A DNA stretch of 64,000 bases from Acidobacteriaceae bacterium. Lineage in GTDB: Bacteria; Acidobacteriota; Terriglobia; Terriglobales; Acidobacteriaceae. The notes under the pieces were generated by a model. The model was not told where the DNA came from. It did not search any database and saw only the letters and a list, made by a program, of their open reading frames with translations. The position numbers were made by a program, and so were the translations under genes. This document shows, in pieces, positions 7,406-63,145 of the stretch; within the stretch, counting starts at the first letter, position 1, and each line of letters begins with the position of its first letter. The stretch is taken from positions 64,289 through 128,288 of the forward strand of contig PLHQ01000078.1 in assembly GCA_003138975.1 (NCBI GenBank), in the 5' to 3' direction.

Positions 7406-7440
7406 TGTCATCCTGAGCGCCTCGTTTGCGCGAAGGACCG
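7406..7440 (+). repeat. interspersed repeat A (TGTCATCCTGAGCG...GCGAAGGAC)
   Basis: tgtcatcctgagcgcctcgtttgcgcgaaggaccg. Confidence 0.7.
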
Positions 7441-7572
7441 ATGCAACCTGCTCGCAGCGGCAACGCTGCCGTCCACTCCAATCCCCGCCAATTGCGCTTC
7501 CTTGAATACATTCAAATGTCCTGTTGGGCTTGACCTGAGAGTTCTCCTGTCATAAATTGGCGCAACCCTGTT

Positions 7573-8007
7573 TTGAAGGAGTTTCCTATGCTCGACGGTT
7601 TTAAAAAGTTCATCCTGCGGGGCAATGTGGTGGATATGGCGGTCGGCGTAGTCATCGGCGCGGCCTTCGGCGGCGTGGTCGCGGCGCTTACCAAGGACTT
7701 GCTCACACCTCTAATCGGAGCACTCGTCGGCAAGCACGGTGACTTTTCCAGTCTCGCATTTACCATTAATGGCACGCCGTTTCCTGTCGGGGAGTTCATT
7801 AACGCCTGTGTCTCGTTCTTCCTGATTGCCGCTACGATTTACTTCTTCGTGGTCACTCCGGTAAATGCTCTGGTGGCCCGCATGAATAAAGGCGAGAAGC
7901 CCGCCGACCCCACCACCAAGAAGTGTCCCGAGTGCCTCAGCGAGATTCCCATCGACGCCCGCCGCTGTGCCCACTGCACGCAGCCGGTCCTGGGACGAGC
8001 CGCATAA
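7573..8007 (+). CDS. mscL: large-conductance mechanosensitive channel MscL with C-terminal zinc-ribbon-like tail
   Basis: MLDGFKKFILRGNVVDMAVGVVIGAAFGGVV core; tail KKCPECLSEIPIDARRCAHC. Confidence 0.95.
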   Translation: MKEFPMLDGFKKFILRGNVVDMAVGVVIGAAFGGVVAALTKDLLTPLIGALVGKHGDFSSLAFTINGTPFPVGEFINACVSFFLIAATIYFFVVTPVNALVARMNKGEKPADPTTKKCPECLSEIPIDARRCAHCTQPVLGRAA

Positions 8008-8022
8008 CTACCTCTCAGCAAC

Positions 8023-8049
8023 AAGGGCGGCCAATTTTGGCCGCCCTTT
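8023..8049 (+). terminator. rho-independent-like hairpin after mscL
   Basis: aagggcggccaattttggccgcccttt: 8-bp GC stem, short loop, T run. Confidence 0.7.
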
Positions 8050-8070
8050 CGATCATCCAGCAACGCGTCC

Positions 8071-8601
8071 TTAGATGCCCTCATCCGCCGACGGCCCGTA
8101 CACCGAAGGCACCGGCACTCCATTCAGCCGCAGATAAACTCCCAACTGCGCCCGATGATGGATCATGTGATTCATCATCATTCGCCGCAGCGCGCCAATC
8201 CGCGGTCCGTCATAAATCTTCTTCTCGCCTACCGCCAGCGACCAGTTCTTCTGCAAGTCTGCATCGCTCACGCCGGCAATCGCCGCCCGCAACTGCGCCA
8301 CGTTCTTATCGAATATTTCCACTATATGCTTCTGCGACTCCGCCACCAGCGGCTTCTGCCCCGGCGGCCGGTTCGCAAAGTTGAACGAGTCCACCTGGAT
8401 CATCATCATTCCAAATCCCGGCAGCTCCGCCAAATGCCCCGCCAGCCTACCCAGCCCCATCGATTTCTCGTGCGGCTTCCAGGTTAGCTTGTCCTCCGGA
8501 ATCCGCTCCAGCGTCTTCCGCGTGCTCGCCATCTCGAGATCGAGTTCCTTAAGCAGTCCTTCGCTTACTCCCATTTCATTCCTCCCTCCTGATATTTCCA
8601 T
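8071..8601 (-). CDS. DinB family protein
   Basis: 176 aa; helical DinB-like pattern with metal-ligand His residues (GHLAELP, MMNHMIHHRAQLGVYLRL). Confidence 0.8.
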   Translation of the reverse strand: MEISGGRNEMGVSEGLLKELDLEMASTRKTLERIPEDKLTWKPHEKSMGLGRLAGHLAELPGFGMMMIQVDSFNFANRPPGQKPLVAESQKHIVEIFDKNVAQLRAAIAGVSDADLQKNWSLAVGEKKIYDGPRIGALRRMMMNHMIHHRAQLGVYLRLNGVPVPSVYGPSADEGI

Positions 8602-8620
8602 GTGCAGGATTTAAGAGCCA

Positions 8621-8660
8621 TGTGGGAACAGCGCCCTCGGCTGTCCACGGAGCGAAGCTC
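8621..8660 (+). repeat. interspersed repeat B (TGTGGGGACAGCCGCCCTCGGCTGTCCG)
   Basis: tgtgggaacagcgccctcggctgtccacggagcgaagctc. Confidence 0.75.
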
Positions 8661-9100
8661 CCAGCCTTACTCTTGGTTTGGATGTGCCGCCGCACCACTT
8701 CGCTTCTCTAAGTCTTGGGGAAGGAGTCTGTTGTGAAAAAGTCCACTAAAACGCACACTCGCGCCCACTTCATGATCGCCCGTAGCACCCGCATATTGTT
8801 CTTGCTTTCACAACATATCCACAGAGCCCATCTGCCGTTCCACTATTACCAACTCGGTTCGCGCGCCGTTTCCGACATCAGTCCGCAAAGAAATTCCACT
8901 TTCACCGCCCGCAGCCTCGGCTGACATAAAACCATAGAACGCCCAACTCACTTTCTCCCACCCATTAACTTCCAAGATTCTTACCCAGCGAGATTCGAGC
9001 GCACCTGTCTGTGGATGAACTCCGCCGCTCAAAAAAGAAAAGCGGCCCACGAAGGCCGCCATCCAATCTGAAAACTGAAAACTGAGAACTAGCTTCTGCC

Positions 9101-9568
9101 CTACCGCCCCGTCGCCGCTCCCGCTGCCATCATCCCCGCAATCTGCATCCCTTCGATCCGCGCCAGGACATTCTCCACGCTCGCGCCCGTATCCGTGCAC
9201 GCATCCACATACGGATGCCGGCTTCCATCCGCGTGCATTACCAGCACCGCGGCCTCCGCCTGAGCCTTCTTCACCATATAAGGCAGATGATGCCGGTCAT
9301 TGCGCGTTAAGCTAGGACCCAACACCACCAGATCGAACGTCCCCTTTTGCAGCGCCTCCACAACAGCCTTGCGCCCTAAAGCCATATGAACCGTGTGCCC
9401 GGCTTTCTCAAACGCCGCTGCCGGAGCCACCTGCGCCTCCGCATCCCCTTCACCATAAAGAATTCTCAGCTTCGCTGCTTTCGACATTGCTCCCATCCTT
9501 GCGCAGTACGAGCGACTCCATACTGGCAAAGCCACGGTAGCAACCGCCCCGGTTTCTGAGAACGTCAC
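9101..9568 (-). CDS. response-regulator-receiver-like protein
   Basis: MSKAAKLRILYGEGDAEAQVAPAAAFEKAGHTVHMALGRKAVVEALQKGTFDLVVLGPSLTRNDRHHLPYMVKK; likely internal start. Confidence 0.55.
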   Translation of the reverse strand: MTFSETGAVATVALPVWSRSYCARMGAMSKAAKLRILYGEGDAEAQVAPAAAFEKAGHTVHMALGRKAVVEALQKGTFDLVVLGPSLTRNDRHHLPYMVKKAQAEAAVLVMHADGSRHPYVDACTDTGASVENVLARIEGMQIAGMMAAGAATGR

Positions 9569-9736
9569 CGAAGACCAGCAACGAACGGGCCTATTTCACT
9601 CGTGTGTCGGACGTTGCCCGAGCGCAGCCGAAGGGTCCGCCGTGCGTAGAACGCCCGATCCCTCCCAATCAGAACTCAAAATCCCTTCCCCTGAGCCCGT
9701 TTCGGCGCTACACTTCTCGCCCAGAGGGGGGCTACC

Positions 9737-10228
9737 ATGTTCCGCGCTTACTTCGTCGTTGCTGTTCTGTTTCTGCTCGCTGCCGCCTGTTTTGCCCAGC
9801 AGTCTGAGCCCTCATCCACCGCCAGTTGTAACCTCGACGATGGACGCCAGATCTACATCCGCTACAATCCCGTCTCCTCCAAGAACGACAAGCTTGCCAA
9901 CGGCAAGCCCTGGACTCCCGGCGGCGCCGCCATGACACTTTTCACCGAGGTCCAGCTCAGCTTCGGAGGCTCCACCATCCCCGTCGGCGCCTACACCGTT
10001 TACCCGATCCCCGCCAAAGACAAGTGGACCCTTGCCGTCAACAGAAACGTTACTGTCGGCGCCGCTTACGACGAGAAACAGGACATCGTCCGCGCACCCA
10101 TGGAGACCGATCAGGTTAGCCAAGCCGCTGATTCGCTCGAAGTAGCCTTCGCTCACGTGGGAGACAAGTGCACACTCCGCATATACTTCGGCAAGAGCGC
10201 CTCCTTCGCCCCCTTCACCGCCCGGTGA
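9737..10228 (+). CDS. DUF2911-like secreted protein
   Basis: Signal peptide; YIRYNPVSSKNDK...GGSTIPVGAYTVYPIPAKDKWTLAVNR. Confidence 0.65.
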   Translation: MFRAYFVVAVLFLLAAACFAQQSEPSSTASCNLDDGRQIYIRYNPVSSKNDKLANGKPWTPGGAAMTLFTEVQLSFGGSTIPVGAYTVYPIPAKDKWTLAVNRNVTVGAAYDEKQDIVRAPMETDQVSQAADSLEVAFAHVGDKCTLRIYFGKSASFAPFTAR

Positions 10229-10254
10229 CTCCATTGCGCGGGCGGGAGCACAAC

Positions 10255-10645
10255 ATGGAACCTACGCTTATTACGGATCATGCGCTGAGGGATGTTCTGG
10301 ATGAACTGAAACGCCTCGAACCTATCTTCCATCGTCGCGAATTGGGCACCACAAGGGCCGATTTCGAAAGCATGACGGTCGCAGATTTTTGGGAAGTGGG
10401 CGCCTCGGGTCGCCGGTATGACAGAGACTACGTTCTAGCTGAACTCGAAAAGCGCTATGCAGGAGTATCTAGACCTCTGGGAAACCAGGGATTTTTATTG
10501 CCGAAGGCTAGCTGAAGACCTCTACCTGCTGACTTATACGCTTCTCCAGGTTGAGCGTACGACCCGCCGGGCCACGATCTGGCAGCGCACCCAGTCCGGC
10601 TGGAAGATCGTGTTTCATCAGGGAACCATCGTTCAGGATGGATGA
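10255..10645 (+). pseudogene. DUF4440/SnoaL-like protein, split by a frameshift
   Basis: N-half in frame of 10168-10515 (MEPTLITDHALRDVLDELKRLEPIFHRRELGTTRADFESM...), C-half in frame of 10457-10645 (EYLDLWETRDFYCRRLAEDLYLLTYTLLQVERTTRRATIWQRTQSGWKIVFHQGTIV). Confidence 0.65.
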
Positions 10646-10660
10646 GGTTACCGAGACAAT

Positions 10661-11803
10661 ATGACTACTGATCGACAAGGTTCCGGGCGAATGCTCGCTG
10701 TTGTCTGCGACAACCGCCTCGCTTACTCGCTTATTGCCCTTTTCCTCGCCACCACCACGGCCTTCGCCCAGCCGGCCCGCCAAACTCATCCCTCCAACAC
10801 CACGGAAAATCTCCGTGGTGTCAGCGCCGTATCTCAACAAATCGCGTGGGCCTCCGGCACCCACGGCATCTACCTCCGCACCACCGACGCCGGCCGCACC
10901 TGGATCCCAGCCCAAGTCTCCGACGCTACCGCTCTCGACTTTCGCGGCGTCGTCGCCTTCTCTGCTGACGAAGCTTTCCTCATGTCTGCCGGACCCGGCG
11001 ACCAGTCGCGCATCTACCACACCACCGACGCCGGCCAGCACTGGCAACTCCAATTTACGAACTCCAATCCCAAAGCCTTCTTCGACGCCATCGCCTTTTG
11101 GGATCCCACTCACGGCATCGTCCTCGGCGATCCCATCCCCGACAATTCCGGCCAACTAAAATTCCAACTCCTTCTCACCACCGACGGCCAATCCTGGACT
11201 CCCGTCCCTCCTTCTCAACTCCCACCCGCCCTCGTTGGGGAAGGCGCCTTCGCCGCCAGCAACACTTGTCTCGCCATTCTCCCCAACAACGACCCCAACA
11301 TCTGGTTCGCGACAGGCGGCAAAGCCGCCCGCGTGTTTCACTCTCCCGATCGCGGTCGCACCTGGCAAGTTTTCAACACTCCCATCACTCACGGCCCCGA
11401 TTCCGCCGGCATCTTCTCCATCGCCTTCCGTGACGGCAACCACGGCGTCATCGCCGGCGGCGACTACAAACATCCCGACCAGGATGGCCTCAACCTCGCC
11501 TTCACCTCCGACGCCGGCAAAACTTGGATTGTCTCCAGAATTTTTCCGCAATCCTATTATTCGGCCGTAGCCTACGATCGCAAGCACAGAGATCCCAGAG
11601 CCAACACCTTAGGCGAAGACCAAGCCCGCATCCGCCTCTTTATCGCGGCCCCCAAGTTCATCTATGACTTCCGCCCGCCCAAAGACCCCACCCGCATCAG
11701 CCCTCCCAAGAAATCTGGCATCCAATTCAACGCCCTCAGCCCCTACCCCACCGGCGGAGCCCTTTTCGTCGGCCCCAAAGGCTCCGTCGCCACCATCCCC
11801 TAG
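10661..11803 (+). CDS. YCF48/BNR-like beta-propeller secreted protein
   Basis: Repeated TTDAGRTW / TTDAGQHW / SPDRGRTW / TSDAGKTW motifs. Confidence 0.8.
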   Translation: MTTDRQGSGRMLAVVCDNRLAYSLIALFLATTTAFAQPARQTHPSNTTENLRGVSAVSQQIAWASGTHGIYLRTTDAGRTWIPAQVSDATALDFRGVVAFSADEAFLMSAGPGDQSRIYHTTDAGQHWQLQFTNSNPKAFFDAIAFWDPTHGIVLGDPIPDNSGQLKFQLLLTTDGQSWTPVPPSQLPPALVGEGAFAASNTCLAILPNNDPNIWFATGGKAARVFHSPDRGRTWQVFNTPITHGPDSAGIFSIAFRDGNHGVIAGGDYKHPDQDGLNLAFTSDAGKTWIVSRIFPQSYYSAVAYDRKHRDPRANTLGEDQARIRLFIAAPKFIYDFRPPKDPTRISPPKKSGIQFNALSPYPTGGALFVGPKGSVATIP

Positions 11804-11809
11804 TCCCCT

Positions 11810-11849
11810 TGTCATCCTGAGCGCGTTCTTTTGCGCGAAGGACCTATGC
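11810..11849 (+). repeat. interspersed repeat A
   Basis: tgtcatcctgagcgcgttcttttgcgcgaaggacctatgc. Confidence 0.7.
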
Positions 11850-12065
11850 ACTCGACCGCAGCGCCAATCCCGCAGACATTTAAAAACCGCCGCGTACCCG
11901 CAAGTCACCCCCTCAACCACTCATCCTGCATCACCCCACGCCATTTTTCCCGAAACCTCCACGGCTTTCCCATCATCCAACCAACAGCCCATGTTCCAAA
12001 GTTTCCCAACCCCCGCGCCCCGCGCGCCCAGATTTGGAGTACACTCCTAAGAACGTTTTTCCAAT

Positions 12066-12422
12066 ATGTTCACTCCGCACCCCAACCTAGCCGACGACGT
12101 CAACCACGCGATCGTCCAATCCGAAATCGAAGGCGGAGTCTTCCTCCATGATCTCCCGCCCTCCACTATCCTCGAAATCCAGACTCTGCACCACTGCTAC
12201 ACTGCAGTCCTCCTCGGCGGCAGCGAAGCTCTGCTCTCCGGCCATCCCGAATTCTGTCCCAGCCCCGTTCAAGTCGCCATCGCCGGTTCCACTTGGGGAG
12301 GATCCATGCTCAAATTGCAATACGTCGGACGCGGCATGCACCTGGAATTCCGCCATCCCGAATACGACACCCCCATCATCACTTCTCCCATCCAGGAAAT
12401 CCGCGACTATCCCTCTGTGTGA
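12066..12422 (+). CDS. hypothetical protein
   Basis: 118 aa ORF with coding-like composition between two annotated genes. Confidence 0.55.
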   Translation: MFTPHPNLADDVNHAIVQSEIEGGVFLHDLPPSTILEIQTLHHCYTAVLLGGSEALLSGHPEFCPSPVQVAIAGSTWGGSMLKLQYVGRGMHLEFRHPEYDTPIITSPIQEIRDYPSV

Positions 12423-12549
12423 CCCTTGTGTCCCCCGTGGTTAGGATTCTGGAAATTTAGGTTTCCACCGAAGCTCCTCACCCACGAAGCTCCTCACCCA
12501 TTGACTAACGCCGCCTTCGCCTCTACCATTCCCCGAAGCCCGATTTACT

Positions 12550-12903
12550 ATGACCATTACCACGCGCGAAGTCAGCCACGTCACCATCGTCGACCTCAAC
12601 GGACGCATCACCCTCGGCGACGAAACTGGAAAACTTCGCGACACGGTCCGCGAGCTCATCTCCGCCGGCAAGAAAAAAATTGTTCTCAATCTTGCCCATG
12701 TCGATTACATCGACTCCTCCGGCGTCGGCGAACTGGTCAGCAGCTTCACCGCTGTCCGCAACGCCGGCGGCGAGCTCAAGCTCCTCAGCCTCACCAAGAA
12801 AGTTCAAGACATCCTCTACGTCACCAAGCTTTACACCGTCTTCGACATCAAAGACGACGAATTCACCGCCGTAAAATCCTTCGATTACTTCTTCGCAAAG
12901 TAA
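12550..12903 (+). CDS. STAS-domain anti-sigma factor antagonist
   Basis: 117 aa; VDLNGRITLGDETGKLRD...HVDYIDSSGVGELVSSFTAVRNAGGELKLLSL. Confidence 0.92.
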   Translation: MTITTREVSHVTIVDLNGRITLGDETGKLRDTVRELISAGKKKIVLNLAHVDYIDSSGVGELVSSFTAVRNAGGELKLLSLTKKVQDILYVTKLYTVFDIKDDEFTAVKSFDYFFAK

Positions 12904-12924
12904 TCTTCTCTTCTGATTCTCTCC

Positions 12925-12990
12925 GTCATCCTGAGCGAAGAAGTTGCTTGCCCGTTTAGCGCAGGCGTCTGCGCAGTCGAAGGATCCCTG
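12925..12990 (+). repeat. interspersed repeat A
   Basis: gtcatcctgagcgaagaag...gtctgcgcagtcgaaggatccctgc. Confidence 0.65.
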
Positions 12991-13170
12991 CACTACCTGG
13001 CACCACGACCGGCCTCAAAAGGGAATTCTCCCAGTTACGTCGCTGCCATCTTGCTTAAGATTTCAAGAGTTTATACGGGTGAACGACGATGCCTGTGTGG
13101 GGACGGGCGACTCGCCCGTCCGTTTTTGGCTTGATATTCCGCTCGCAACTCGGTGCTCGGTACCTGCAAC

Positions 13171-13473
13171 TTACTTCCCATACTCCTGTACTTCCCCATC
13201 CACCGACAGCGCCACATACTTGTGCGACTCGACATCGCGAAACTGCACCACCTGATGCTTCTCCCGTGCCAACTTACCCCACCGGCCCGGCTTCTCGCGG
13301 TTCTGCTCAATCGCCTCAAACACCCGTCCGTTCATCTTGAACTGGAGCATCCTCAGCCGCCCGCTTCCCACTCGTCTCACCGGGACCTGGTGATCCTCCA
13401 AAAGCAATTCCTCTCCATTCATCAATTGTGCCGCCACCGATCCCAGGACTTTCTCCAATTCCGTCAAAGCCAT
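13171..13473 (-). CDS. hypothetical protein
   Basis: 100 aa; MALTELEKVLGSVAAQLMNGEELLLEDHQVPVRRVGSGRLRMLQFKMNGRVFEAIEQN. Confidence 0.6.
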   Translation of the reverse strand: MALTELEKVLGSVAAQLMNGEELLLEDHQVPVRRVGSGRLRMLQFKMNGRVFEAIEQNREKPGRWGKLAREKHQVVQFRDVESHKYVALSVDGEVQEYGK

Positions 13474-13574
13474 TTCCCACTTTCCCTTCAGATTCCGTTC
13501 GTTGCGCTAATCATAATCTGTATTTTCACTCACCGCATTCCACCGATTACTATCTCGACACCCTTGAAACCTCG

Positions 13575-13616
13575 TGTGTGGGGACAGCCCCCTCGGCTGT
13601 CCGCGCAGCGAAGCTC
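13575..13616 (+). repeat. interspersed repeat B
   Basis: tgtgtggggacagccccctcggctgtccgcgcagcgaagctc. Confidence 0.75.
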
Positions 13617-13653
13617 CGTCATTGTTTGCATCCGCTCCCGTTACAATATCCTC

Positions 13654-14400
13654 GTGACCGAAGCCTCCACCCGCGAAGCGCCTGCGGCAACCGAAATCAC
13701 ACTCGGCCCCCGCCGCTTCACCCTCCGCCAACGAATCGTGCTGCGCATCATCATCACTGGGGGATACTGGTTCATCCGCCTCATTGGCCCCACCCTGCGC
13801 GTGTGCGTCTCTCGCGAAGAAAGCGCGCAGCAAACAGTCGGCCAGCGGCCGCTGATCGCCTCCTTCTGGCATGCCTGCATTATTCCCGCAACCTACATGT
13901 GCCGCAACCTCGGCGTGCGCGTGATGAGCAGCAACAGCTACGACGGCGAATACATGGGACGCATCATCCGCAAATTCGGATTCGTCGCCGTTAAAGGTTC
14001 GAGCAGCCGCAATGCCGTGCGCGCCCTGCTCGGCCTACGCCGCGCTTTGCAGGAAGGATGGACAGTCGCCTTTAGCCTGGACGGTCCCCGTGGCCCGCGT
14101 TACAAAGTGAAGCCCGGACCGGTCGCCCTCGCACGCTCTTCCGGCGTTCCCCTGACCATGTTTCACATGGCCGTCGACCGCGCCTGGGTCCTCAACACCT
14201 GGGATCGACTGATTATCCCGAAGCCCTTTTCCCGCGTCCTGATGCGCTTCGGCAAACTGATCCCCGTTCCGGCGGATGCCAGCGACGAAGACCTGGAGCG
14301 CTACACCACAGAACTCCAAGCGTCTCTCGACCGCGTCTGCGAATTCGCCGAAGCTAACATCCAGAGAGTCGGTTTGCCCGAATTTCCCTGCGGTGCTTGA
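13654..14400 (+). CDS. lysophospholipid acyltransferase-like (DUF374) protein
   Basis: GTG start at 13654; SFWHACIIPATYMCR..., SLDGPRGPRYKVKPGPVALARSSGVPLTMFHMAV. Confidence 0.8.
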   Translation: MTEASTREAPAATEITLGPRRFTLRQRIVLRIIITGGYWFIRLIGPTLRVCVSREESAQQTVGQRPLIASFWHACIIPATYMCRNLGVRVMSSNSYDGEYMGRIIRKFGFVAVKGSSSRNAVRALLGLRRALQEGWTVAFSLDGPRGPRYKVKPGPVALARSSGVPLTMFHMAVDRAWVLNTWDRLIIPKPFSRVLMRFGKLIPVPADASDEDLERYTTELQASLDRVCEFAEANIQRVGLPEFPCGA

Positions 14401-14409
14401 GGATGAGCG

Positions 14410-14826
14410 ATGGACAGGACGATGACCAACACCTACACCGCCAAGAAAATAAGTCCAATGCTCGTGGTTGCCGATATGGAAGCGACCCTCGCTTTCTATC
14501 ACGATGTTCTCGGATTTACCGCCGCAATGAAGTCTCCGGAGTATTCCATCGTCGAACGCGATGGCCAAACCATCCAGTTCATGAAAGCAGCATCCGAAGA
14601 AGTCATGCAGTGCGTGCGCGGTCACACCGAGATCTACATCGAAGTCTCAAGCATCAGCTCCCTCTGGGAGCACGTGAAAATCTTCAAAGACCGATACAAA
14701 ATCCGCGATTTATTCGATAGAGAATACGGCATGACCGAGTTCCACATCAGCGATCCGAACGGCTGCCTGGTCTTTGTCGGAGAGCCAACGTCTGGGGGAA
14801 AACAAGCCCAGGGGACACAAAGTTGA
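14410..14826 (+). CDS. VOC (glyoxalase/bleomycin resistance) superfamily protein
   Basis: KKISPMLVVADMEATLAFYHDVLGFTAAM...FHISDPNGCLVFVGEP. Confidence 0.85.
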   Translation: MDRTMTNTYTAKKISPMLVVADMEATLAFYHDVLGFTAAMKSPEYSIVERDGQTIQFMKAASEEVMQCVRGHTEIYIEVSSISSLWEHVKIFKDRYKIRDLFDREYGMTEFHISDPNGCLVFVGEPTSGGKQAQGTQS

Positions 14827-14904
14827 TCCCGTGCGATTTGACTTACAGCTGATCCAGCCGGTAAATTTCTCACACCGTTATTTTCCGTTCTTTGAAATGT
14901 CCTT

Positions 14905-15105
14905 CGGTTTGCGCGTCTTTGCCTCGTGGCGAAGACAGGGAAGCGGGTGCAATTCCCGCGCTGCCGCGCAACTGTAAGCGAGAAAATCGCAGCCGGTCAC
15001 TGGAAGCAATCCCGGGAAGGCCGTCTGCAAGCAACCGGATGTTCTGGCCCATCACGGACCAACATCCTCACTCGCAAAGCCAGGAGACCGGCGTAAACCG
15101 TCCAC
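14905..15105 (+). ncRNA. cobalamin (B12/AdoCbl) riboswitch
   Basis: gggaagcgggtgcaattcccgcgctgccgcgcaactgtaa (14939-14979), CACTGgaag...gGGAAGgcc, and B12 box gccaggagaccggc (15079-15092), directly upstream of a TonB receptor ORF. Confidence 0.95.
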
Positions 15106-15120
15106 CTTAACCCCTTTCGC

Positions 15121-17358
15121 GTGAAAAGGAGGATGGTTATGCGCGCACTTGGCGCTTTATTTTTGCTTTTTGTTTTTCTCGCGGCAGCATCCGCTGCCGA
15201 CCTCAAGCTCAAGGTTGTTGATCCTCAATCCGCCACCGTCTCTGGCGCCCAAATTTCCTTGTTTTCAAAAGGGACAGACACTCCTCTGAAAGTTGTCTTT
15301 TCCTCCGCCGAAGGAATGGCAACATTCCCTGGCGTGTCGTCAGGCAATTATCAGATTCAAGTCCTGGCTCCGGGTTTTGCGCCCCAAACCGAAGACATCG
15401 CCACCCATTCCGATGTCATCACCATCCATCTGCATCTCGCCCCAGCGTCTGAGACCGTTGTGGTGACCGCGACCAGAACTCCAGCACTCGCCGAAGAAAC
15501 CGGTTCCAACATTTCCACTCTGGAAAGCGGGCAACTCGAAACCATGCAGCCCACAGCCGCTGACGATGCTGTCCGCTTTCTCCCTGGCGCCGTGGTGAAT
15601 ACCGCCGGCCAGCGCGGAGGCTTGTCGTCCCTTTTCGTGCGCGGTGGCGAGTCCAATTACAACAAAGTGATGGTCGATGGCGTCACCATCAACGAGCCCG
15701 GAGGAACTTTCGACTTCGGCACGCTTCCTCTCACCGAAGCCAACCGCATGGAGTTTCTCCGCGGCACACAAAGCACACTCTACGGCTCCGATGCCATGAC
15801 CAGCGTGGTTCAAGTCTTTACCCGCACCGGCAGCACTCGTACCCCTGAACTCCGCTTCGGCGCCGATGGCGGAAACTTCTCGACCGCCACCGGCAACGCA
15901 TCCTTCGCGGGGACGCGCGGCCACTTCGACTACAACGTCTTCGGCGATCAGTTCAACACCAACGGTTCAGGAATCAATGACGCCTATTCCGACTCGCTCC
16001 AAGGTGCGAACCTTGGCGCAGTGCTCAACGACGAAGTGTCGTTGCGTATTCACATGCGTCACTCCAACAGTCACACCGGCGTTCCCGGCGAATGGAGCTT
16101 CAACGGCTACGACCCGCTGGTCAATGTAAACGGCGTGACCCAACCCCTGCAGCCCGATCCCAGCGAATGGTCCCAGCTCAACAGCTTGCTGGGCAGCGCG
16201 GAACTCACGGTGGCCGCGCCTTCGGGCTGGCAGCACCGCTTCACTGGCTTCGACTATCTTTACCGCTACACAGACCTGAATGTGAACGGCGACCCTGCCC
16301 GCGTGAGTCCGCTCTACGGCCAGTTCGACTTTCCATCGCACCAGTACGATCACATCAATCGCGTGGGATTTGAATACCAGGGCGATTACTCCGAGCGAAC
16401 CTGGGCCCACACCACTTTCGGATATCGCATCGAAAACGAAAACGGCGTCGTGGGGGATCTGGATTACCCTCCCTCCAGTTCCGGGCAGCGTTTGAATCAG
16501 GATGCCTACCTGCAACAACAACTCACCTGGGGCAGGCTGTCGGCGGTCGCCGGCGGCCGTTTCGTTCATAGCAGCGTCTTTGGCAATACCGGCGTGCCGC
16601 GGATTGCTTTAACTTTGCTGGCGCGACGGGGTGGAGAAACTTTTTCTGGAACGCGCTTGCGTTTTTCCTACGCCACGGGATACAAGGAGCCCCGCCTGGA
16701 AGAGACGTTCGCCGGACCGCCCTATTCCATTCCAAATCCCGGTCTCAAGCCAGAGCGGGTCCGCGCCTTCGAGGCGGGCATCCAGCAGGATTTCTTGCAT
16801 GGAAAATATGTCTTCAATGCCACTTACTTCAACAACCTGTTTCACGACCAGATCAACTACGTCACCGTCAATCAAACCACCTTTGTCGGTGAATACTTCA
16901 ATGTGAATCAGGCATTCGCGCAAGGTGCGGAAGTCGAACTGCAAGCCAGGCTCCGCAGCAAGTTGCTGCTCAGCACCGCATACACTTACACCTCGACGGA
17001 GATTCTGAGCAATCCCGCTCCCATCGATTCGCAGTACGATCCCGGCCAGCCGCTGCTGCGCCGCCCCAAACATTCCGCCACCATGCTGGTGTCTTACCTC
17101 GGCAGCCGCTGGGGCGCAAATCTGAGTGGAAGCTTCGTCGGCCGCCGTCCCGACGATGATTTCTACGGCTTCAACATCGACCACGCCGCCGGCTACGTCC
17201 GCGCGGACCTCGGCGGATGGTATGCCATCAACGCTCGCGTCACCGCCTACGCGAACGTCGAGAACGCCCTCGACCGCCGCTACAACGAAGTCGTCGGCTA
17301 TCCCGCACTACCCATCAACTTCCGCGCCGGCTTTCGCTTTCGCCTTGGAGGAGAATAA
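15121..17358 (+). CDS. TonB-dependent receptor, BtuB-like
   Basis: 745 aa; N-terminal carboxypeptidase-regulatory-like domain, plug SLFVRGGESNYNKVMVDGVTINEPGG, C-terminal beta-barrel; preceded by B12 riboswitch. Confidence 0.92.
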   Translation: MKRRMVMRALGALFLLFVFLAAASAADLKLKVVDPQSATVSGAQISLFSKGTDTPLKVVFSSAEGMATFPGVSSGNYQIQVLAPGFAPQTEDIATHSDVITIHLHLAPASETVVVTATRTPALAEETGSNISTLESGQLETMQPTAADDAVRFLPGAVVNTAGQRGGLSSLFVRGGESNYNKVMVDGVTINEPGGTFDFGTLPLTEANRMEFLRGTQSTLYGSDAMTSVVQVFTRTGSTRTPELRFGADGGNFSTATGNASFAGTRGHFDYNVFGDQFNTNGSGINDAYSDSLQGANLGAVLNDEVSLRIHMRHSNSHTGVPGEWSFNGYDPLVNVNGVTQPLQPDPSEWSQLNSLLGSAELTVAAPSGWQHRFTGFDYLYRYTDLNVNGDPARVSPLYGQFDFPSHQYDHINRVGFEYQGDYSERTWAHTTFGYRIENENGVVGDLDYPPSSSGQRLNQDAYLQQQLTWGRLSAVAGGRFVHSSVFGNTGVPRIALTLLARRGGETFSGTRLRFSYATGYKEPRLEETFAGPPYSIPNPGLKPERVRAFEAGIQQDFLHGKYVFNATYFNNLFHDQINYVTVNQTTFVGEYFNVNQAFAQGAEVELQARLRSKLLLSTAYTYTSTEILSNPAPIDSQYDPGQPLLRRPKHSATMLVSYLGSRWGANLSGSFVGRRPDDDFYGFNIDHAAGYVRADLGGWYAINARVTAYANVENALDRRYNEVVGYPALPINFRAGFRFRLGGE

Positions 17359-17514
17359 GTCAGGAAGAGACTGAGCTCATGTAGGGACCGCCGCCCTAGC
17401 TTGCCCTGAGCGAAGCCGAAGGGGCCGTCCCGCCGAGCACAGCGCGAGGCGCTGCAAGCTGCCACAAATTTTGCTTTTATGTTGCACAGCAGATGTACGG
17501 CGCGGCTGGCTCGC

Positions 17515-18213
17515 TCAACTTACCTTTTCAGGCTCCCCCGCCATCACCATCGGCATTGCCGCGTTCATCTTCCCCCCGAAATATTTCGTCCGCGCCAGTA
17601 ACAATTTTTCGATGTCAACCCCGGTCAGCGGCTGCTGCCTTCCTAGCAGATGCGTGACCAGCGCAATCTGCGCGAAGTGTTCCACCGTTTCCATCTTCAT
17701 GTAAGCGTGCTCGATGGTATCGCCGTACGCCACCACGCCGTGATTCGACATTAGGATGGCGTCGTAGTGTGGCACGTAAGGTTCCAGAGTCTTCGCTAAC
17801 TCCGACGTTCCCGGCGTCCCGTATCGCGCCAGCGGAATGCATCCCAATCCCATCACCACTTCACAAACCAGAGGCTCCGTCAGCGCCATTCCTGCAGCCG
17901 CGAATCCCGTCGCCGTGGGCGGATGCGCGTGCACGATCGCCTGAACGTCGGGCCGCGTGCGATAAATCAGCAGATGCATCCCAATCTCACTGGTCACATT
18001 CCGCCGTCCCCCCACCCGCCTGCCCTCCAGGTCGACGATCACCATATCCCCGGCTCGCATCGCCCCTTTGCTCACGCACGTGGGCGTTACCAGAATTCGC
18101 CCGCCGTCCAGCCGTACCGACAAATTCCCGTCCATCGCCGCCACGAACCCGCGCTCGTGCAGCATGCGCCCGTACCGAACAATCTCTTCCCTGTGTTTCC
18201 GTTCAGCGGACAT
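17515..18213 (-). CDS. class II aldolase/adducin family protein
   Basis: 232 aa; AIVHAHPPTATGFAAAG...AILMSNHGVVAYGDTIEHAYMKMETVEHFA. Confidence 0.92.
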   Translation of the reverse strand: MSAERKHREEIVRYGRMLHERGFVAAMDGNLSVRLDGGRILVTPTCVSKGAMRAGDMVIVDLEGRRVGGRRNVTSEIGMHLLIYRTRPDVQAIVHAHPPTATGFAAAGMALTEPLVCEVVMGLGCIPLARYGTPGTSELAKTLEPYVPHYDAILMSNHGVVAYGDTIEHAYMKMETVEHFAQIALVTHLLGRQQPLTGVDIEKLLLARTKYFGGKMNAAMPMVMAGEPEKVS

Positions 18214-18376
18214 GGAATACTCTCATCGGGGGAGTGACGAAAGAGCGGCAGAAGCTACAACCCCCGCATAATATCGCACCTTGCTTGAAACAGACAAACA
18301 AATTTACCAGGGTTGACAGAATATCTTGCCAGGGCCTCGAGGCATCCGCTCCCCTGCCCTCCTATAATCTGGAGCC

Positions 18377-19468
18377 GTGTTGGTTTCCGACTTTCACTTT
18401 CACCTTCCCGACGAACTCATAGCCCAGGAACCCCTCGCCGCTCGCGACGCCTCCCGCATGCTACACGTCCAGCGCACCAGCGGCCAGTGGTCCGACCGTG
18501 AGTTTCGCGAATTTCCAGATTTATTGCGACCGGGCGACCTGGTGGTTTTCAACAACACTCGTGTCTTTCCCGCCCGGCTCTACGGCCGCCGCGGAGGCGC
18601 CCGCGCTCAGGCTGTCAGTCCTCATAATCCCGCAGCCCGCGATTTCCTTCACGCCCGCATCGAAGTGCTGCTGACGCGACAAATTTCTGCGGACCCCAAC
18701 GATTGGGAATGCCTGGTCCGTCCCGGCCGCAAGATCGGCCTGGGCGAATGCCTGTTCTTCGGCGAACGTGACGAACTACAAGCCGAGGTCCTGGCTCGCG
18801 CTGAATTTGGCGAGCGCCGCATCCGCTTCCAGCCGGTCACAGATTTCTTCGCCGCCCTCGATCGCATTGGACACGTCCCGCTCCCGCCTTACATTTCGCG
18901 CGCGGACTCTCCCCGCGATCACGAGCGCTATCAAACCGTCTATGCCGCGCAGCTCGGCTCCGTCGCCGCTCCCACCGCAGGACTTCATTTCACCCCGGAA
19001 ATTCTAGACCGCATCCGCCAGCGGGGGGCTGAAACCGCCGATATTACCCTGCACGTCGGCCTGGGAACCTTTCAGCCTATCCGCGTCGAGCGCGTCGAAG
19101 ATCACAAACTCCACTCTGAGTCGTATTCCATTTCCCCGGGCGCAGCCTCCGCCATCAATCAAGCTCTCCGTACTGCGCGTCGCATCGTCGCCATCGGCAC
19201 TACGACTGTTCGCACGCTCGAACACGCGGTTCGCCTCGGCGCGGGAACCATCGTCGCGGGCGCTGCCGCAGCAGACCTCTTCATCTATCCAGGCTTCGAA
19301 TTCAAAGTGGTCCAGGCGATGCTAACCAACTTCCACCTCCCGCAATCCTCTCTGCTCATGCTGGTCAGCGCCTTCGGCGGTAAGGAAAACATTTTGCGCG
19401 CGTACGAACATGCCGTCTCCGAGAAGTATCGTTTTTATTCCTACGGAGACTGCATGTTCATCGAGTAG
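18377..19468 (+). CDS. queA: S-adenosylmethionine:tRNA ribosyltransferase-isomerase
   Basis: [25 protein letters not shown]...[11 protein letters not shown]...[10 protein letters not shown]...[25 protein letters not shown]. Confidence 0.97.
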
Positions 19469-19510
19469 TCTTCGTGAATGATCACTTTGGAAGAGAGCTA
19501 CTCAAAGAAC

Positions 19511-19545
19511 CCTGTGTTCCTCTGCGTCCCCTGTGGTTAAAAGGC
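19511..19545 (+). repeat. interspersed repeat C (CTGTGTTCCTCTGCGTCCCCTGTGGTTAAA)
   Basis: cctgtgttcctctgcgtcccctgtggttaaaaggc. Confidence 0.65.
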
Positions 19546-19599
19546 TTTTCCTACCATCCTCTGCTCCAAGCCTTGCGTTATACTTGCTCCGAGCAGCCC

Positions 19600-20181
19600 A
19601 TGACTACCGCGGTAAAGCAGGTCCCAATTGAGAGCTTCGTGGCCGAACTCCGCAAGTTCGCCGAGGCTGCCTTTGAGCAAACCGAGCAACTGCGAAAATT
19701 TCTGCAAGATGCTCCGGTCGATCCCGATTCCCTCGCTCCCTATCTCACCTGGGACCGCCAACACTACACTCGCAACCTGATCGACAAAACTGCTCTTTGC
19801 GAATTAATTGCGATCTGCTGGGAAGTCGGCCAGGCCAGTTCCGTGCACAATCATCGCGATCAGAATTGCTGGATGGCCGTCCCCATCGGCCGTTTGCTGG
19901 TGGAGAATTTTCATGTCGTGGATCAGAACATCGCCGACGGCAAGTGCACAATCAAGTCCACAGAAGTCGTTGAGATGAATGCTTTGCACCCCTGCGCCGT
20001 CGACCCGTTAGAGCCCGTCCACCGGGTCCTCAATCCCCGCGAATTCAATCAACGTGCCGTCAGCCTGCATGTCTATTCGCGTCCCTTCGACACCTGCGTC
20101 GTCTACTCCGCCGAGCAGGGCACGTGCGGCGAAATCCAGTTGCACTACACTACCGAATACGGAAAACCCGTTCACGGATGA
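19600..20181 (+). CDS. cysteine dioxygenase type I family protein
   Basis: Start MTTAVKQVPIESF; cupin motif SSVHNHRDQNCWMAVPIGRLLVENF, HRVLNP. Confidence 0.85.
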   Translation: MTTAVKQVPIESFVAELRKFAEAAFEQTEQLRKFLQDAPVDPDSLAPYLTWDRQHYTRNLIDKTALCELIAICWEVGQASSVHNHRDQNCWMAVPIGRLLVENFHVVDQNIADGKCTIKSTEVVEMNALHPCAVDPLEPVHRVLNPREFNQRAVSLHVYSRPFDTCVVYSAEQGTCGEIQLHYTTEYGKPVHG

Positions 20182-20699
20182 ATCAAAAGACGCGCTTCCG
20201 TTTCCTGCCACTGCTCCTGGTTGCCGCGCTTTTCGTTTTCACCAGCGCCTGCCAGAAAAGGAAGCCGCCAACCGAAGAAGAAGAAGTTCTGCCCATGGAC
20301 CGCGTCGCGCCTTCGCCAGCGGCGTCCACCCAAACCGTTCTGCACAAGACCTTTTCGGTCAACACTTCGACAACCTTCCGGTTCGAGATTCCCGCCCACG
20401 CCGCCATGCCCCATCTGCGCGGCAACTACAAGTCATTTGTGAACCAGCTCGGCGCCCAGGCTAGCGACGATAGTGCGAATGTCGACTTCCTCCTTTTGAA
20501 CGAAGATCAGTACGCTGACTTTGTCCACGGCCACGCCGGAGAAGCCCTCTTCTCCGCCGATGCGTCGCATGACCAGGACGTAAATGTCAGCCTTCCCCCG
20601 TCCCAGGATCAGCCCGAGAAGTACTACCTGGTTTTCCGTAACAGCACCGGGGGCGCGGCGAAGAAGCTCGTGCAAGCCGACTTCACACTTGATTTCTAA
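20178..20699 (+). CDS. lipoprotein of unknown function
   Basis: Start ATGA-overlaps upstream stop; lipobox-like LFVFTSACQKRKPP. Confidence 0.7.
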   Translation: MNQKTRFRFLPLLLVAALFVFTSACQKRKPPTEEEEVLPMDRVAPSPAASTQTVLHKTFSVNTSTTFRFEIPAHAAMPHLRGNYKSFVNQLGAQASDDSANVDFLLLNEDQYADFVHGHAGEALFSADASHDQDVNVSLPPSQDQPEKYYLVFRNSTGGAAKKLVQADFTLDF

Positions 20700-20849
20700 T
20701 GGTCTTGTTGGATAACTCTGATTTTGGGTGCCGCAGCGCTTCCAGCGCTGCGATTGATGACCACTTGAGATCTGGGCTTCAGCCTCTGAGGTACCTGAGT
20801 GGAGTTTCACCGGACCCCTGCTGTTCCCACCGGCTGCTAAACTACTGCC

Positions 20850-23742: not shown

Positions 23743-23763
23743 GCCCCCGTTGCTCGGTAGTCG

Positions 23764-47229: not shown

Positions 47230-47243
47230 GGTCTAGCAAAAAT

Positions 47244-47621: not shown

Positions 47622-47635
47622 CGCTGGAAAGCTAG

Positions 47636-60468: not shown

Positions 60469-60803
60469 GTTCTTGTCGTTTTCCTATACCGCCCGGTGTC
60501 GATGCCGTACCCGGGCTTGCATAGGAATAGACGGTCTGTCAGTGGAACCGTGAGCAGGAATTATAGGCTGGCAGGGGATTTTTATGCGGCCTAGGTGATT
60601 CTTTCATAATGGGTTAGCGGGAGACAGAACAGCTACACAACATCGACGGCGACCGTTGTTGCCGCAAAAACTAAAGTGGAATCCGAGCCCCATGCGACAT
60701 TCCGCGGATTCTTGTGTTCTTAAGCAATGTAGACTGGTGACGCTCTGGGACAGGTCGTCTCCTGATCGTCCGACCGACCGCACAAGCCAGACTCGAGGAT
60801 CTT

Positions 60804-62018
60804 ATGTTCTTCCGCGCCTCGTTCGCCTCTCTTGCCTTGCTTGCCAGCTTCTTTCAATTCTCGACCGGAGTCAGCGCCGCCCAAGCTCTCACTCCAGTCT
60901 GCCAACCCTCGGTGACTTCGCCGATCGTCGTTGCCTCTCCGGCGCAGCGCCTTGCGGCGGGCGCCAAGGCTCAGCCGCCGCTCACCGACACTTTCGATTG
61001 GCCCGACACTCCGCTGGGCGTCATCAAGACGTCCGATGGCTACGAGTTTTTTGGCAGTGATGGCGGTGCGCACTACCGGCAGATGAGGCAAGGACATTGG
61101 GTCGGCAACAACAAGTCGGGGTCGTTTACGACCACGGTGGGCACGCTCGACAACCCGCTCGGCAAGGGCGATCCTCATGACGTCAGTGTATCCCCGAATC
61201 CCAATCCCTCGGTGAACCCCATCTATCCCAGCTATGGCTACATGGGTGGGGGGCCGGTCTATCAGGTTCCTGCGGGCATGACGGGGGCGAGCAACCTGCT
61301 GGCGACTTACCACGCAGAACTCCCCAACGATGCCCTCTATGCGGCCCTCGGGCTGGCTGCATCCACGGATAACGGCCTACATTGGACCGACCTCGGTGAG
61401 ATCATTCGTCTGAACCAGGCATACGCGGTCGGGCTCGACGGCTTTGAAATCGGCGACGGTCCGCTGGTGCTCTCGCCCGACGGCAAGTATTTCTATTTAT
61501 ATTTTCCCGACTGGATCGCCAACGGTTCGCTGCACACCACGAACGCCCAAGGGGAGTCGACCACTACCAACGTCTCGGTTGCGCGGGCGTTGGCTACCGA
61601 CGTACTGGATACCGCATTCGGACCGGCGCCGCATCACTCTATCGCCTTCCAGAAATTTTATGAGGGCAACTGGCATCTGCAGCCCGCGATCGGCGGAGCG
61701 TCCACCGACCTCAATCCCCATGCCCCATATTCAGGCTATCTCGATATCCACTACAACAGTGCTTTGCAGCGTTATGGGATGATCATTTCCGACGATACGA
61801 ACTTCGCTTACGCGGAATCCACCGACGGCCTTGCCTGGACGCTGCCCATCTCACTTGGTACTTTCGGCCCGATTGCGGCGTATCCCACTGCCGTCGGCCT
61901 AGGCGATGATCCGCACACGCTGGGCAAGAGCTTTTACGTTTACTTCACCTATTTGCCGACCGACGGCAGCGGATGGACCAACGGCTCTCTACGCAGGTTA
62001 ACGCTCACGTGCCAATGA
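60804..62018 (+). CDS. secreted hypothetical protein, sialidase/beta-propeller-like
   Basis: 404 aa; signal peptide; ASTDNGLHWTDLGEII. Confidence 0.6.
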   Translation: MFFRASFASLALLASFFQFSTGVSAAQALTPVCQPSVTSPIVVASPAQRLAAGAKAQPPLTDTFDWPDTPLGVIKTSDGYEFFGSDGGAHYRQMRQGHWVGNNKSGSFTTTVGTLDNPLGKGDPHDVSVSPNPNPSVNPIYPSYGYMGGGPVYQVPAGMTGASNLLATYHAELPNDALYAALGLAASTDNGLHWTDLGEIIRLNQAYAVGLDGFEIGDGPLVLSPDGKYFYLYFPDWIANGSLHTTNAQGESTTTNVSVARALATDVLDTAFGPAPHHSIAFQKFYEGNWHLQPAIGGASTDLNPHAPYSGYLDIHYNSALQRYGMIISDDTNFAYAESTDGLAWTLPISLGTFGPIAAYPTAVGLGDDPHTLGKSFYVYFTYLPTDGSGWTNGSLRRLTLTCQ

Positions 62019-62098
62019 TCAAGGCCGGTGTGGAGCAACAGACAAAGTGCAGGACAGGACAAAAACCGGGCCGAGCGCCCGGGCCGGATTTTCCAATA

Positions 62099-62554
62099 CT
62101 ACTCTGCGACCACTTCCTTCTCGATCACAACCTTCAAATACGCGGTCACGTCCTTGTGCAGCTTCACCGGCACGGTGAACTCGCCCAAGGTCTTCAGCGG
62201 CTCGTGGAGCTGGATCTGGCGGCGATCCAGGTTGATTCCCTTTTTTACAATGGCGTCGGCAATGTCGCCGGAGGTGACCGAGCCGAATAACTGATCGTGC
62301 TCGCCCGAGCGGCGCTGGAACGAAGCCGATAAGCCTTCGAACTGCTTTGCCAGTTCTTCAGCCTGCGACTTCTCCTTGGCCGAACGGCGCACCGAGGCAG
62401 CCTTCATCTGCGTGATGACGGCTTTGTTGCCCGCATTCGCTTCAATGGCCAGCTTGCGCGGCAGCAGAAAGTTGCGTCCATATCCTTCGGCAACCTTCAC
62501 CACGTCGCCGCGCGCGCCCAGTTTGCTCACATCTTCTTTGAGAATGACTTCCAT
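62099..62554 (-). CDS. rplI: 50S ribosomal protein L9
   Basis: MEVILKEDVSKLGARGDVVKVAEGYGRNFLLPRKLAIEA. Confidence 0.98.
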   Translation of the reverse strand: MEVILKEDVSKLGARGDVVKVAEGYGRNFLLPRKLAIEANAGNKAVITQMKAASVRRSAKEKSQAEELAKQFEGLSASFQRRSGEHDQLFGSVTSGDIADAIVKKGINLDRRQIQLHEPLKTLGEFTVPVKLHKDVTAYLKVVIEKEVVAE

Positions 62555-62579
62555 GATATGACTCCGATCCTTCGCTTAT

Positions 62580-62664
62580 TTGTCATCCCGAGCGAAGCGA
62601 GAGGGATCTGGGTTCGTCTCGCCGCCAGCAAAAACCCAGATTCCTCGCTTCGCTCGGAATGACA
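62580..62664. repeat. inverted pair of the TGTCATCC(T)GAGCGAAGCGA repeat
   Basis: ttgtcatcccgagcgaagcgagagggatctgggtt ... aacccagattcctcgcttcgctcggaatgaca; between rpsR and rplI. Confidence 0.85.
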
Positions 62665-62713
62665 ACGCTGTTGTGTACCCGTCTGAATCCGTGCAAATCC
62701 GCGGGCTAATCTC

Positions 62714-63085
62714 TTACGATGCCCGTCCAGCAAACGGCAGCAGGGCGATGTTGCGGGCCTGCTTGATGGCCGAGGCCAAGCGGTGTTGGTGTGGCGAACA
62801 TACGCCGGTCAAGCGCCGAGGCACGATCTTGCCGCTTTCCGCCACGAACTGGCCGAGCAGCCGGTAATCTTTGTAGTTGATGTCGGCAATTTTTTCGGTG
62901 CAGAATTTGCAGACTTTCTTGCGCCGGAAAAACTTCCGCCCGCCTTCACGCGGCGGACCACCGGGCCCGGAACGGCCAGCACCGCCGCCTCCGCCGAATC
63001 GCGGACGGTCTCCTCCTCCGGAACGCTCACCGAAAGGCCGCGATGGCCGCTCGGTTGCCGCTGGTGCTTTCGTCTCTTCAGTCAT
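62714..63085 (-). CDS. rpsR: 30S ribosomal protein S18 with Gly-rich N-terminal extension
   Basis: [67 protein letters not shown]. Confidence 0.97.
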
Positions 63086-63145
63086 AACACTCCTTCATGA
63101 TCTTCAGTTCTCAGTTCTCGGTTCTCAGAAGAACCCCTGGCTCAG

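What the first reader, a model, noticed from the sequence alone, without database searches (positions are those of the whole stretch)
7406..63132. Several families of short interspersed repeats share a polarity that reverses at about 30 kb
Family B (TGTGGGGACAGCC..CTCGGCTGTCC) is forward at 8621, 13575, 23701, 28431 and reversed at 36497 and about 45691. Family A (TGTCATCCTGAGCG..) is forward at 7406, 11810, 12925, 26877, 28951 and reversed at 31166. Family C (CTCTGTG..CCCTGTGGTTA) is forward at 12412, 19511, 29150 and reversed at 30913. Family D (GGTACTCG..ACTCGG type) is forward near 13140 and reversed at 31087 and 32144. GGACACTCCTGTCC is at 23660 and its exact reverse complement GGACAGGAGTGTCC at 31231. 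The CTGAAAACTGAGAACT type is at 9069 and reversed at 63101. The only mixed locus seen is the inverted pair at 62580-62664. Orientation therefore tracks the skew switch, like replichore-polarised architecture sequences, and could reflect a strand-biased mobilisation mechanism or a function in segregation.
Basis: partly seen in the sequence, partly recalled or inferred. Interest (0 to 1): 0.85.

Follow-up and report, generated by a model that had tools for sequence, protein, structure and literature searches.

The report
Polarised repeats mark many skew switches
In this soil bacterium (Candidatus Sulfotelmatobacter), short hairpin repeats all point toward places where the DNA's strand composition abruptly flips, and such places recur many times along the chromosome rather than once, as if it were copied from many starting points instead of the single one bacteria normally use.

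Summary
Families A, B, E (plus two found here, G and H) are forward where the + strand is C-rich and reversed where it is G-rich: 96/103 copies over 819 kb of this genome (51/55 clusters, p=2e-11) and 66/81 over 954 kb of a congener. Local composition predicts only 0.23-0.61 agreement; gene strand does not explain it. The CTGAAAACTG family is not significantly polarised.

The single-replichore reading is wrong. The 30-kb switch sits on a parS-like cluster between rsmG and parA, but the same minus-to-plus skew jump recurs about every 50-140 kb with gradual decline between jumps (a saw-tooth, like human 'N-domains'). It is present at 4-fold sites of both gene strands, recurs at parA and nrdJ in congeners, and is absent from a class outgroup and 200 kb of E. 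coli. tRNA genes lie on the G-rich strand (14/14).

B, E, G and H are GTGG-foot hairpins like REP elements of Y1 (RAYT) transposases. Best explanation: skew and repeat orientation both record local replication-fork direction, and forks diverge from many fixed sites. Not proven: only MAGs, no DnaA-box clusters, no marker-frequency data.

The parts
8000..29950 (.). left flank of the 30-kb jump: + strand strongly C-rich (GC skew about -0.12 to -0.29 per 2 kb); repeats forward
29950..50000 (.). right flank of the jump: + strand G-rich (GC skew +0.20 falling to about +0.04); repeats reversed
28853..29608 (+). rsmG (gidB); its N-terminal part contains a degenerate A copy (28951) and a C copy (29175)
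   Evidence: Pfam PF02527
29737..29931 (.). parS-like cluster: TGTTCCNNNNGGAACA at 29737 and 29764 (one mismatch each), 29800 and 29916 (exact); the two exact sites are the only exact ones in the genome
   Evidence: ParB binding untested
30039..30839 (+). parA
   Evidence: Pfam AAA_31/CbiA
30954..32141 (+). parB; its N-terminal linker contains reversed D (31087-31112), A (31175) and E (31231) copies
   Evidence: Pfam ParB_N, HTH_ParB
7406..7419 (+). repeat A
11810..11823 (+). repeat A
12924..12937 (+). repeat A
26877..26890 (+). repeat A
31175..31188 (-). repeat A, inside parB
8622..8646 (+). repeat B (GTGG-foot hairpin)
13578..13602 (+). repeat B
23695..23752 (+). repeat B, foot degenerate, with flanks shared with the copy at 28425
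28432..28457 (+). repeat B
36512..36537 (-). repeat B
45692..45716 (-). repeat B, degenerate, inside an ORF
23660..23673 (+). repeat E, core of hairpin GTGG-GTCGGACA-CTCC-TGTCCGAC
31231..31244 (-). repeat E, inside parB
19528..19539 (+). repeat C
30914..30925 (-). repeat C
62581..62664 (.). inverted pair of A copies, no net polarity

Best explanation
Shown: strand composition along this chromosome is a saw-tooth, with abrupt C-rich-to-G-rich jumps about every 50-140 kb and gradual decline between them, and GTGG-foot hairpin repeats (plus family A) point toward the nearest jump from both sides. Inferred: both record the local direction of replication forks. Forks diverge from many fixed sites, one at the parS/parAB locus (window 29.6-30.0 kb) and another at nrdJ, and meet in broad zones between them. 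The strand exposed at the fork gathers a C-against-G asymmetry, and REP-like hairpins, spread as single-stranded DNA by Y1 (RAYT-type) transposases, are fixed mainly in one orientation relative to the fork.
For: Repeat orientation agrees with local skew in 51/55, 46/55 and 10/10 clusters in three genomes, including 17/20 in a blind 400-kb stretch, against composition-based expectations of 0.23-0.61. Among hairpins, GTGG and GTAG feet are polarised 28/30 and 7/7, all other feet 484/1001. At 4-fold sites C/G go from .55/.21 to .25/.50 across jumps in genes of both strands. Sharp jumps are mainly upward: 29 vs 9; skewness of 4-fold jumps +1.60 (p<0.0005) and +0.77 (p=0.0005), not significant in outgroups or E. 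coli. This geometry marks fork-polarity domains in human cells (PMC3320577). Jumps recur at parA and nrdJ in congeners. Genes carried across a jump without inversion have reversed skew; a block inverted across the nrdJ jump keeps its gene-oriented skew. tRNA genes are on the G-rich strand 14/14. Y1 transposase genes occur in 35/37 genomes of the genus.
Against: No marker-frequency, read-depth or fork-direction data. No DnaA-box clusters at jumps or near dnaA, and no shared sequence at jump centres apart from the repeats. The asymmetry is almost purely C against G, without the A/T component that cytosine deamination at forks would give. If jumps are origins, the GTGG-bearing strand is the leading-strand template, whereas IS200-type enzymes act on the lagging-strand template (PMC6006769). 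Total coding sequence is hardly biased (0.50-0.57). tRNA cases reduce to about eight independent loci. Only MAGs are available. One downward jump in G019 (-0.77) is as sharp as the upward ones.
Confidence: 0.45

Rival explanations
1. Recombination or break-repair foci: jumps are fixed sites of double-strand breaks or recombination entry. Strand-specific resection and repair synthesis on the two sides give opposite asymmetries that decay over tens of kb, and the exposed strand receives oriented repeat insertions. Replication still has one origin.
For: Decay over 20-50 kb and a purely C-against-G asymmetry fit a repair or conversion bias at least as well as ordinary fork deamination; most jumps lack origin motifs; repeat density rises toward jumps.
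Against: Does not by itself predict tRNA co-orientation (14/14) or a switch exactly at parS/parAB. No known bacterial system makes fixed break sites of this spacing.
Confidence: 0.22
2. One origin plus rearrangement: an ordinary replication skew was cut up by inversions and translocations, leaving relic domains; repeats keep the orientation they had in the ancestral arm.
For: Gene order around jumps is much rearranged among congeners; the G019 jump near 47 kb lies at a break in synteny with this genome; the literature warns of this mimicry (PMC3269012, PMC4403523).
Against: Inversions make equally sharp jumps of both signs, but upward ones dominate. The strongest asymmetry lies on both sides of each jump, which needs two origin-proximal pieces every time. 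Jumps at parA and inside nrdJ recur while their surroundings differ. Moved genes have taken the sign of their new position.
Confidence: 0.13
3. Jumps are fixed fork-meeting points (terminator-like) and initiation is dispersed between them; the leading strand would then be C-rich in this group.
For: Places the GTGG-bearing strand on the lagging-strand template, as expected for IS200/REP-type enzymes (PMC6006769), and also gives sharp jumps with gradual zones between them.
Against: Reverses the usual sign of bacterial skew; tRNA genes would be head-on to replication 14/14; a jump coincides with parS/parAB, usually near the origin.
Confidence: 0.08
4. Selected polar signals: the repeats are functional guide sequences (for segregation, packing or repair) kept in one orientation by selection rather than by biased insertion.
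For: Consistent polarity of several unrelated sequences and density near jumps.
Against: Families differ in sequence and are patchy between congeners (for family A); some copies lie inside rsmG and parB coding sequence; the density gradient is unlike AIMS.
Confidence: 0.07
5. Artefact: background composition, draft assembly or choice of contigs.
For: This genome is a 223-contig draft with 3% contamination, and its contigs were picked because they hold family A.
Against: Composition predicts about 0.5 or less for A, B, G and H; the result holds without A (35/37 clusters) and in a blind stretch of a 2.05-Mb contig from another MAG (17/20); jumps recur at the same genes in independent assemblies.
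Confidence: 0.03

Closest known systems
REP elements and TnpA-REP/RAYT, relatives of IS200/IS605 Y1 transposases (PMC6006769; REPINs PMC3116915)
   Same: B, E and H have a GTGG foot directly 5' of a perfect hairpin of 8-9 bp with a 3-4 nt loop; intergenic and dispersed; Y1 genes present in the genus, some with GTAG hairpins about 110 nt upstream.
   Different: Mostly single copies sharing one polarity with local skew rather than inverted pairs; G has its foot 4 nt from the stem; A has no such foot; no RAYT has been paired with B or H here.
Skew N-domains and replication-fork polarity domains of the human genome (PMC3320577, PMC4729899)
   Same: Abrupt upward skew jumps with gradual decline between them, seen in genes of both strands.
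   Different: A bacterium, spacing about 50-140 kb instead of about 1 Mb; no replication timing data.
Multi-origin, DnaA-independent replication in cyanobacteria such as Synechocystis PCC 6803 (PMC7198777)
   Same: Skew that does not show the single V expected of one origin.
   Different: There the skew is described as irregular and the replication was measured; here it is a regular saw-tooth with conserved loci and replication was not measured.
Architecture imparting sequences, AIMS (PMC5993296)
   Same: Strand-biased sequences whose polarity switches with the skew.
   Different: AIMS are octamers with single-replichore polarity rising toward the terminus; these are long elements polarised around many sites and densest at the switch.
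Bacterial parABS partition loci
   Same: parA, parB and a cluster of 16-bp palindromes between rsmG and parA.
   Different: Palindrome arms TGTTCC/GGAACA with a variable centre; the classical TGTTTCACGTGAAACA was not found even with three mismatches.

Membership tests
REP element | GT[AG]G 0-2 nt 5' of the hairpin (PMC6006769) | tested here: met
   B, E (copy at 23.65 kb) and H have GTGG directly at the foot; not met for G (4 nt away) and A (no foot)
REP element | perfect basal stem of 7-20 nt with a loop of 2-5 nt | tested here: met
   B 9 bp/4 nt, H 9 bp/3 nt, G 7 bp/4 nt; E 8 bp/4 nt in the window copy
REP element | many dispersed, mainly intergenic copies | tested here: met
   103 copies of A, B, E, G, H in 819 kb, 12 inside gene calls
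REP element | a cognate RAYT gene flanked by the same hairpin | tested here: inconclusive
   E beside one Y1 gene and G beside three in congeners, GTAG hairpins upstream of others; none for B except 1.3 kb from one Y1 gene, none for H
AIMS | leading-strand octamers rising in number and bias toward the terminus | tested here: not met
   polarised around many sites, density highest at the switch
Replichore polarity around one origin | one minus-to-plus skew switch per chromosome | tested here: not met
   12 jumps of 0.15 or more in 819 kb of this genome, 14 in 954 kb of G019
Fork-polarity (N-type) skew domain | sharp upward jumps and gradual declines, in genes of both strands | tested here: met
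Fork-polarity (N-type) skew domain | initiation of replication measured at the jumps | not testable with these tools
   no reads or replication assay
Multi-origin bacterial replication | more than one functional origin per chromosome | not testable with these tools
   only indirect support from sequence
parS | cluster of 16-bp palindromes at parAB, nearly unique in the genome | tested here: met
   two exact sites, both between rsmG and parA, plus two with one mismatch; similar clusters in congeners
DnaA-dependent oriC | cluster of DnaA boxes | tested here: not met
   no cluster in the window nor at jumps in 819 kb, using E. coli-type boxes only

The most novel reading that the evidence does not exclude
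Candidatus Sulfotelmatobacter replicates its chromosome from roughly 50-100 fixed initiation sites (extrapolated from 16 jumps in 954 kb), in eukaryote-like replication domains; the parS/parAB site is only the strongest, and REP-like elements are a fossil record of fork direction.
Probability: 0.33. Interest if true: 0.95.

Novelty: new variant of a known kind. Interest (0 to 1): 0.78.

Why it matters
Single-origin replication is treated as nearly universal in bacteria, and the proposed exceptions rest on irregular skew or on a few cyanobacteria. A regular saw-tooth of strand composition, recurring at named loci across a soil genus and echoed independently by the orientation of several mobile-repeat families and of tRNA genes, would make the question directly testable by read depth or strand-specific sequencing. 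If forks are not the cause, something else fixed in position produces a very large strand asymmetry (4-fold GC skew from about -0.44 to +0.3-0.4), which would itself be new. It also gives a natural record for testing how REP elements insert relative to replication.

Tried and rejected
Single-replichore polarity: rejected, many switches. AIMS: gradient runs the other way. Composition: computed expectation fails. Strand of neighbouring genes: uninformative. Transcription-made skew: same sign in genes of both strands at 4-fold sites. RAYT genes as the cause of jumps (one lies near nrdJ in several congeners): rejected, skew around Y1 genes is no higher than average (0.064 vs 0.078). parS at every jump: rejected, only at parA. 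DnaA boxes at jumps: none clustered. Common sequence at jump centres by all-against-all BLAST: only short matches, mostly the repeats, apart from one 71% match of about 150 bp between C215 and C165 that was not pursued. Highly expressed protein operons as a test of the leading strand: r-protein and infB-nusA genes are co-oriented but their coding composition confounds this, so I rely on tRNAs; rpoB 4-fold skew is -0.18 to -0.01. rRNA: found in one MAG only. hslU and infC as conserved jumps: only in some congeners. Literature searches for replichore-polarised repeats or saw-tooth skew in Acidobacteria found nothing relevant.
Full report
What the window is. It is part of contig C12 of a 5.45-Mb draft genome (223 contigs, 98.6% complete). 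Relatives with named records are Candidatus Sulfotelmatobacter and unnamed Acidobacteriaceae MAGs. Pfam identifies rsmG (28853-29608), parA (30039-30839) and parB (30954-32141). The names dnaA (4575), dnaN, polA and others are my reading of the translations and were not run against a family library. The skew switch lies between rsmG and parA.

The observation. Scanning 819 kb of the same genome with tolerant patterns showed the same rule on other contigs: forward where the + strand is C-rich, reversed where it is G-rich. Two further families, G (GTGGAAGAGCGGCGCTTCAGC) and H (TTTTGGGTGGCGCAGCGCTT), follow it. With copies closer than 2 kb merged, 51 of 55 clusters agree in this genome (p=2e-11), 35/37 without family A, and 36/40 without the window's contig. 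In congener G019 46/55 agree, and 17/20 in a 400-kb stretch chosen blind; in G035 10/10. The F family (CTGAGAACT) does not follow the rule significantly.

Not background. From local base composition at each copy, expected agreement is 0.51 for A, 0.50 for B, 0.61 for E, 0.28 for G and 0.23 for H; observed 0.93, 1.00, 0.82, 1.00 and 0.89. G and H are G-rich on the strand that lies in C-rich surroundings, so composition would give the opposite orientation. The strands of flanking genes carry little information (48/103 and 51/99). A family-free test on perfect hairpins of stem 8 finds polarity in those with a GTGG or GTAG foot (28/30 and 7/7), against 484/1001 for all other feet together. Some other enriched feet (GAAG, AAGA) probably come from the same elements read at other offsets.

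Not one replichore. The contigs of this genome show many switches: on C12, C107, C215, C90, C165, C155, C127, C113 and, weakly, C1. Congener G019, with a 2.05-Mb contig, shows a saw-tooth: abrupt jumps, typically from about -0.1 to about +0.1, followed by gradual decline to the next. At 4-fold degenerate sites pooled over eight jumps, C is 0.55 and G 0.21 on the left, C 0.24-0.26 and G 0.48-0.53 on the right, equally in genes of both strands, while A and T change little. Upward jumps outnumber and exceed downward ones: 29 against 9 at a threshold of 0.15. Skewness of 4-fold jumps is +1.60 (p<0.0005) here, +0.77 (p=0.0005) in G019, +0.56 (p=0.085) in a sister-family genome, -0.07 in a class outgroup and +0.24 (p=0.27) in 200 kb of E. 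coli K-12. Random inversion of one ancestral skew would give equally sharp jumps of both signs.

Conserved loci and dynamics. The switch just upstream of parA is seen in most congeners with sequence there (L099 and L100 are nearly flat). In nrdJ, 4-fold skew is -0.35 to -0.76 in the first third and rises by the last third in all 12 genomes, reaching -0.22 or higher in 10; jumps of 0.32, 0.16 and 0.33 are found there independently in G000, G019 and G035. hslU and infC carry a jump only in some congeners. Gene order around these sites is much rearranged. The block C215:38-66k lies left of the nrdJ jump here and, inverted, right of it in G035, keeping its gene-oriented skew. The polA-glmM-xseA block lies left of the parA jump here and, not inverted, right of it in G019, with the sign reversed. 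Skew therefore follows position relative to the jump.

Which strand is leading. tRNA genes with clear local skew lie on the G-rich strand in 14 of 14 cases, about eight independent loci after removing clusters and orthologues. In most bacteria highly expressed genes lie on the leading strand and that strand is G-rich (established knowledge), so jumps are read as places where forks diverge. Total coding sequence is not clearly biased (0.50-0.57).

What the repeats are. B, E, G and H have GTGG at or near the 5' foot of a hairpin, close to the definition of REP elements used by Quentin et al. (PMC6006769); B, E and H fit it, G misses on spacing. Y1 (IS200-like) transposases, which act on single-stranded DNA, are encoded in 35 of 37 genomes of the genus, with two matches here; several have a GTAG hairpin shortly upstream. 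These are the ingredients of RAYT/REP systems, but no RAYT has been paired with B or H. Family A has no such foot and its mobility is unexplained. Repeats are densest within 10 kb of a jump in this genome (2.8 per 10 kb, falling to 0.3); in G019 the trend is less regular.

The parS-like cluster. Between rsmG and parA are four copies of TGTTCCNNNNGGAACA, two of them exact; those two are the only exact copies in the genome, and congeners have similar clusters in the same place. Other jumps lack it.

Mechanism, with inferred steps marked. Shown: position-bound asymmetry of C against G with abrupt switches, and repeat orientation bound to it. Inferred: the asymmetry comes from fork direction; forks start at many fixed sites; repeats insert or survive in one orientation relative to the fork. 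One difficulty must be stated. If jumps are origins, the GTGG-bearing strand is the leading-strand template and has the identity of the nascent lagging strand, whereas IS200-type transposases act on the lagging-strand template. Either single-stranded REP copies are built into the nascent lagging strand by annealing (inference), or jumps are fixed fork-meeting points and the usual sign of skew is reversed here. The tRNA result speaks for the first.

Comparison with what is known. Saw-tooth skew with abrupt upward jumps is known as N-domains in the human genome, where it reflects fork polarity (PMC3320577). Multi-origin replication has been shown in some cyanobacteria (PMC7198777) and suggested elsewhere from skew, with explicit warnings that rearrangement can mimic it (PMC3269012, PMC4403523). 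I found no report of either in Acidobacteriota, nor of REP-like elements polarised by local skew; the library holds only open-licence papers.

Limits. All congeners are MAGs. The sample of this genome was chosen through family A hits, although the result holds without A. Nearby copies are not independent, so quoted p values use merged clusters, which are still not fully independent within one skew domain. Jump centres are located only to about 1-2 kb. The count of 50-100 jumps per genome is an extrapolation.

Noticed in passing
window 28951-29186 and 31087-31244: Repeat copies lie inside coding sequence: A and C copies within rsmG, and D, A and E copies within the N-terminal linker of parB, where they are translated. 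The parB linker also varies in length among congeners.
   Followed up: partly
window 29737-29931: parS-like palindromes TGTTCCNNNNGGAACA replace the classical TGTTTCACGTGAAACA; in the sister-family genome G043 the form TGTTCCACGTGGAACA sits by parB, a possible intermediate.
   Followed up: partly
window 14894-15110: Cobalamin riboswitch (RF00174, 81.6 bits) upstream of a 741-residue protein encoded at 15133-17358.
   Followed up: no
congeners G001, G003, G005, G012, G014, G023, G034 near nrdJ: A Y1 (IS200-like) transposase gene lies 0.5-4 kb downstream of nrdJ in several congeners, possibly one inherited insertion at a conserved skew jump.
   Followed up: partly
G000 C215:105529-105677 (L020) and C165:22178-22324 (L035): A 150-bp stretch of 71% identity lies close to two separate skew jumps; it looks like a decayed coding sequence (both encode ..VQVKST..).
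   Followed up: no
G043:C28 about 88 kb and 280 kb (L108, L117): The sister family shows upward jumps of lower amplitude although its parAB/parS is not at a jump; the class outgroup G051 is flat. The trait may have arisen or strengthened within this order.
   Followed up: partly
window 1090-1172 and 9068-9083: CAGCT/CTGAGAACT-type repeats often form short inverted pairs and show no clear polarity, unlike the other families; they may be a different kind of element.
   Followed up: partly
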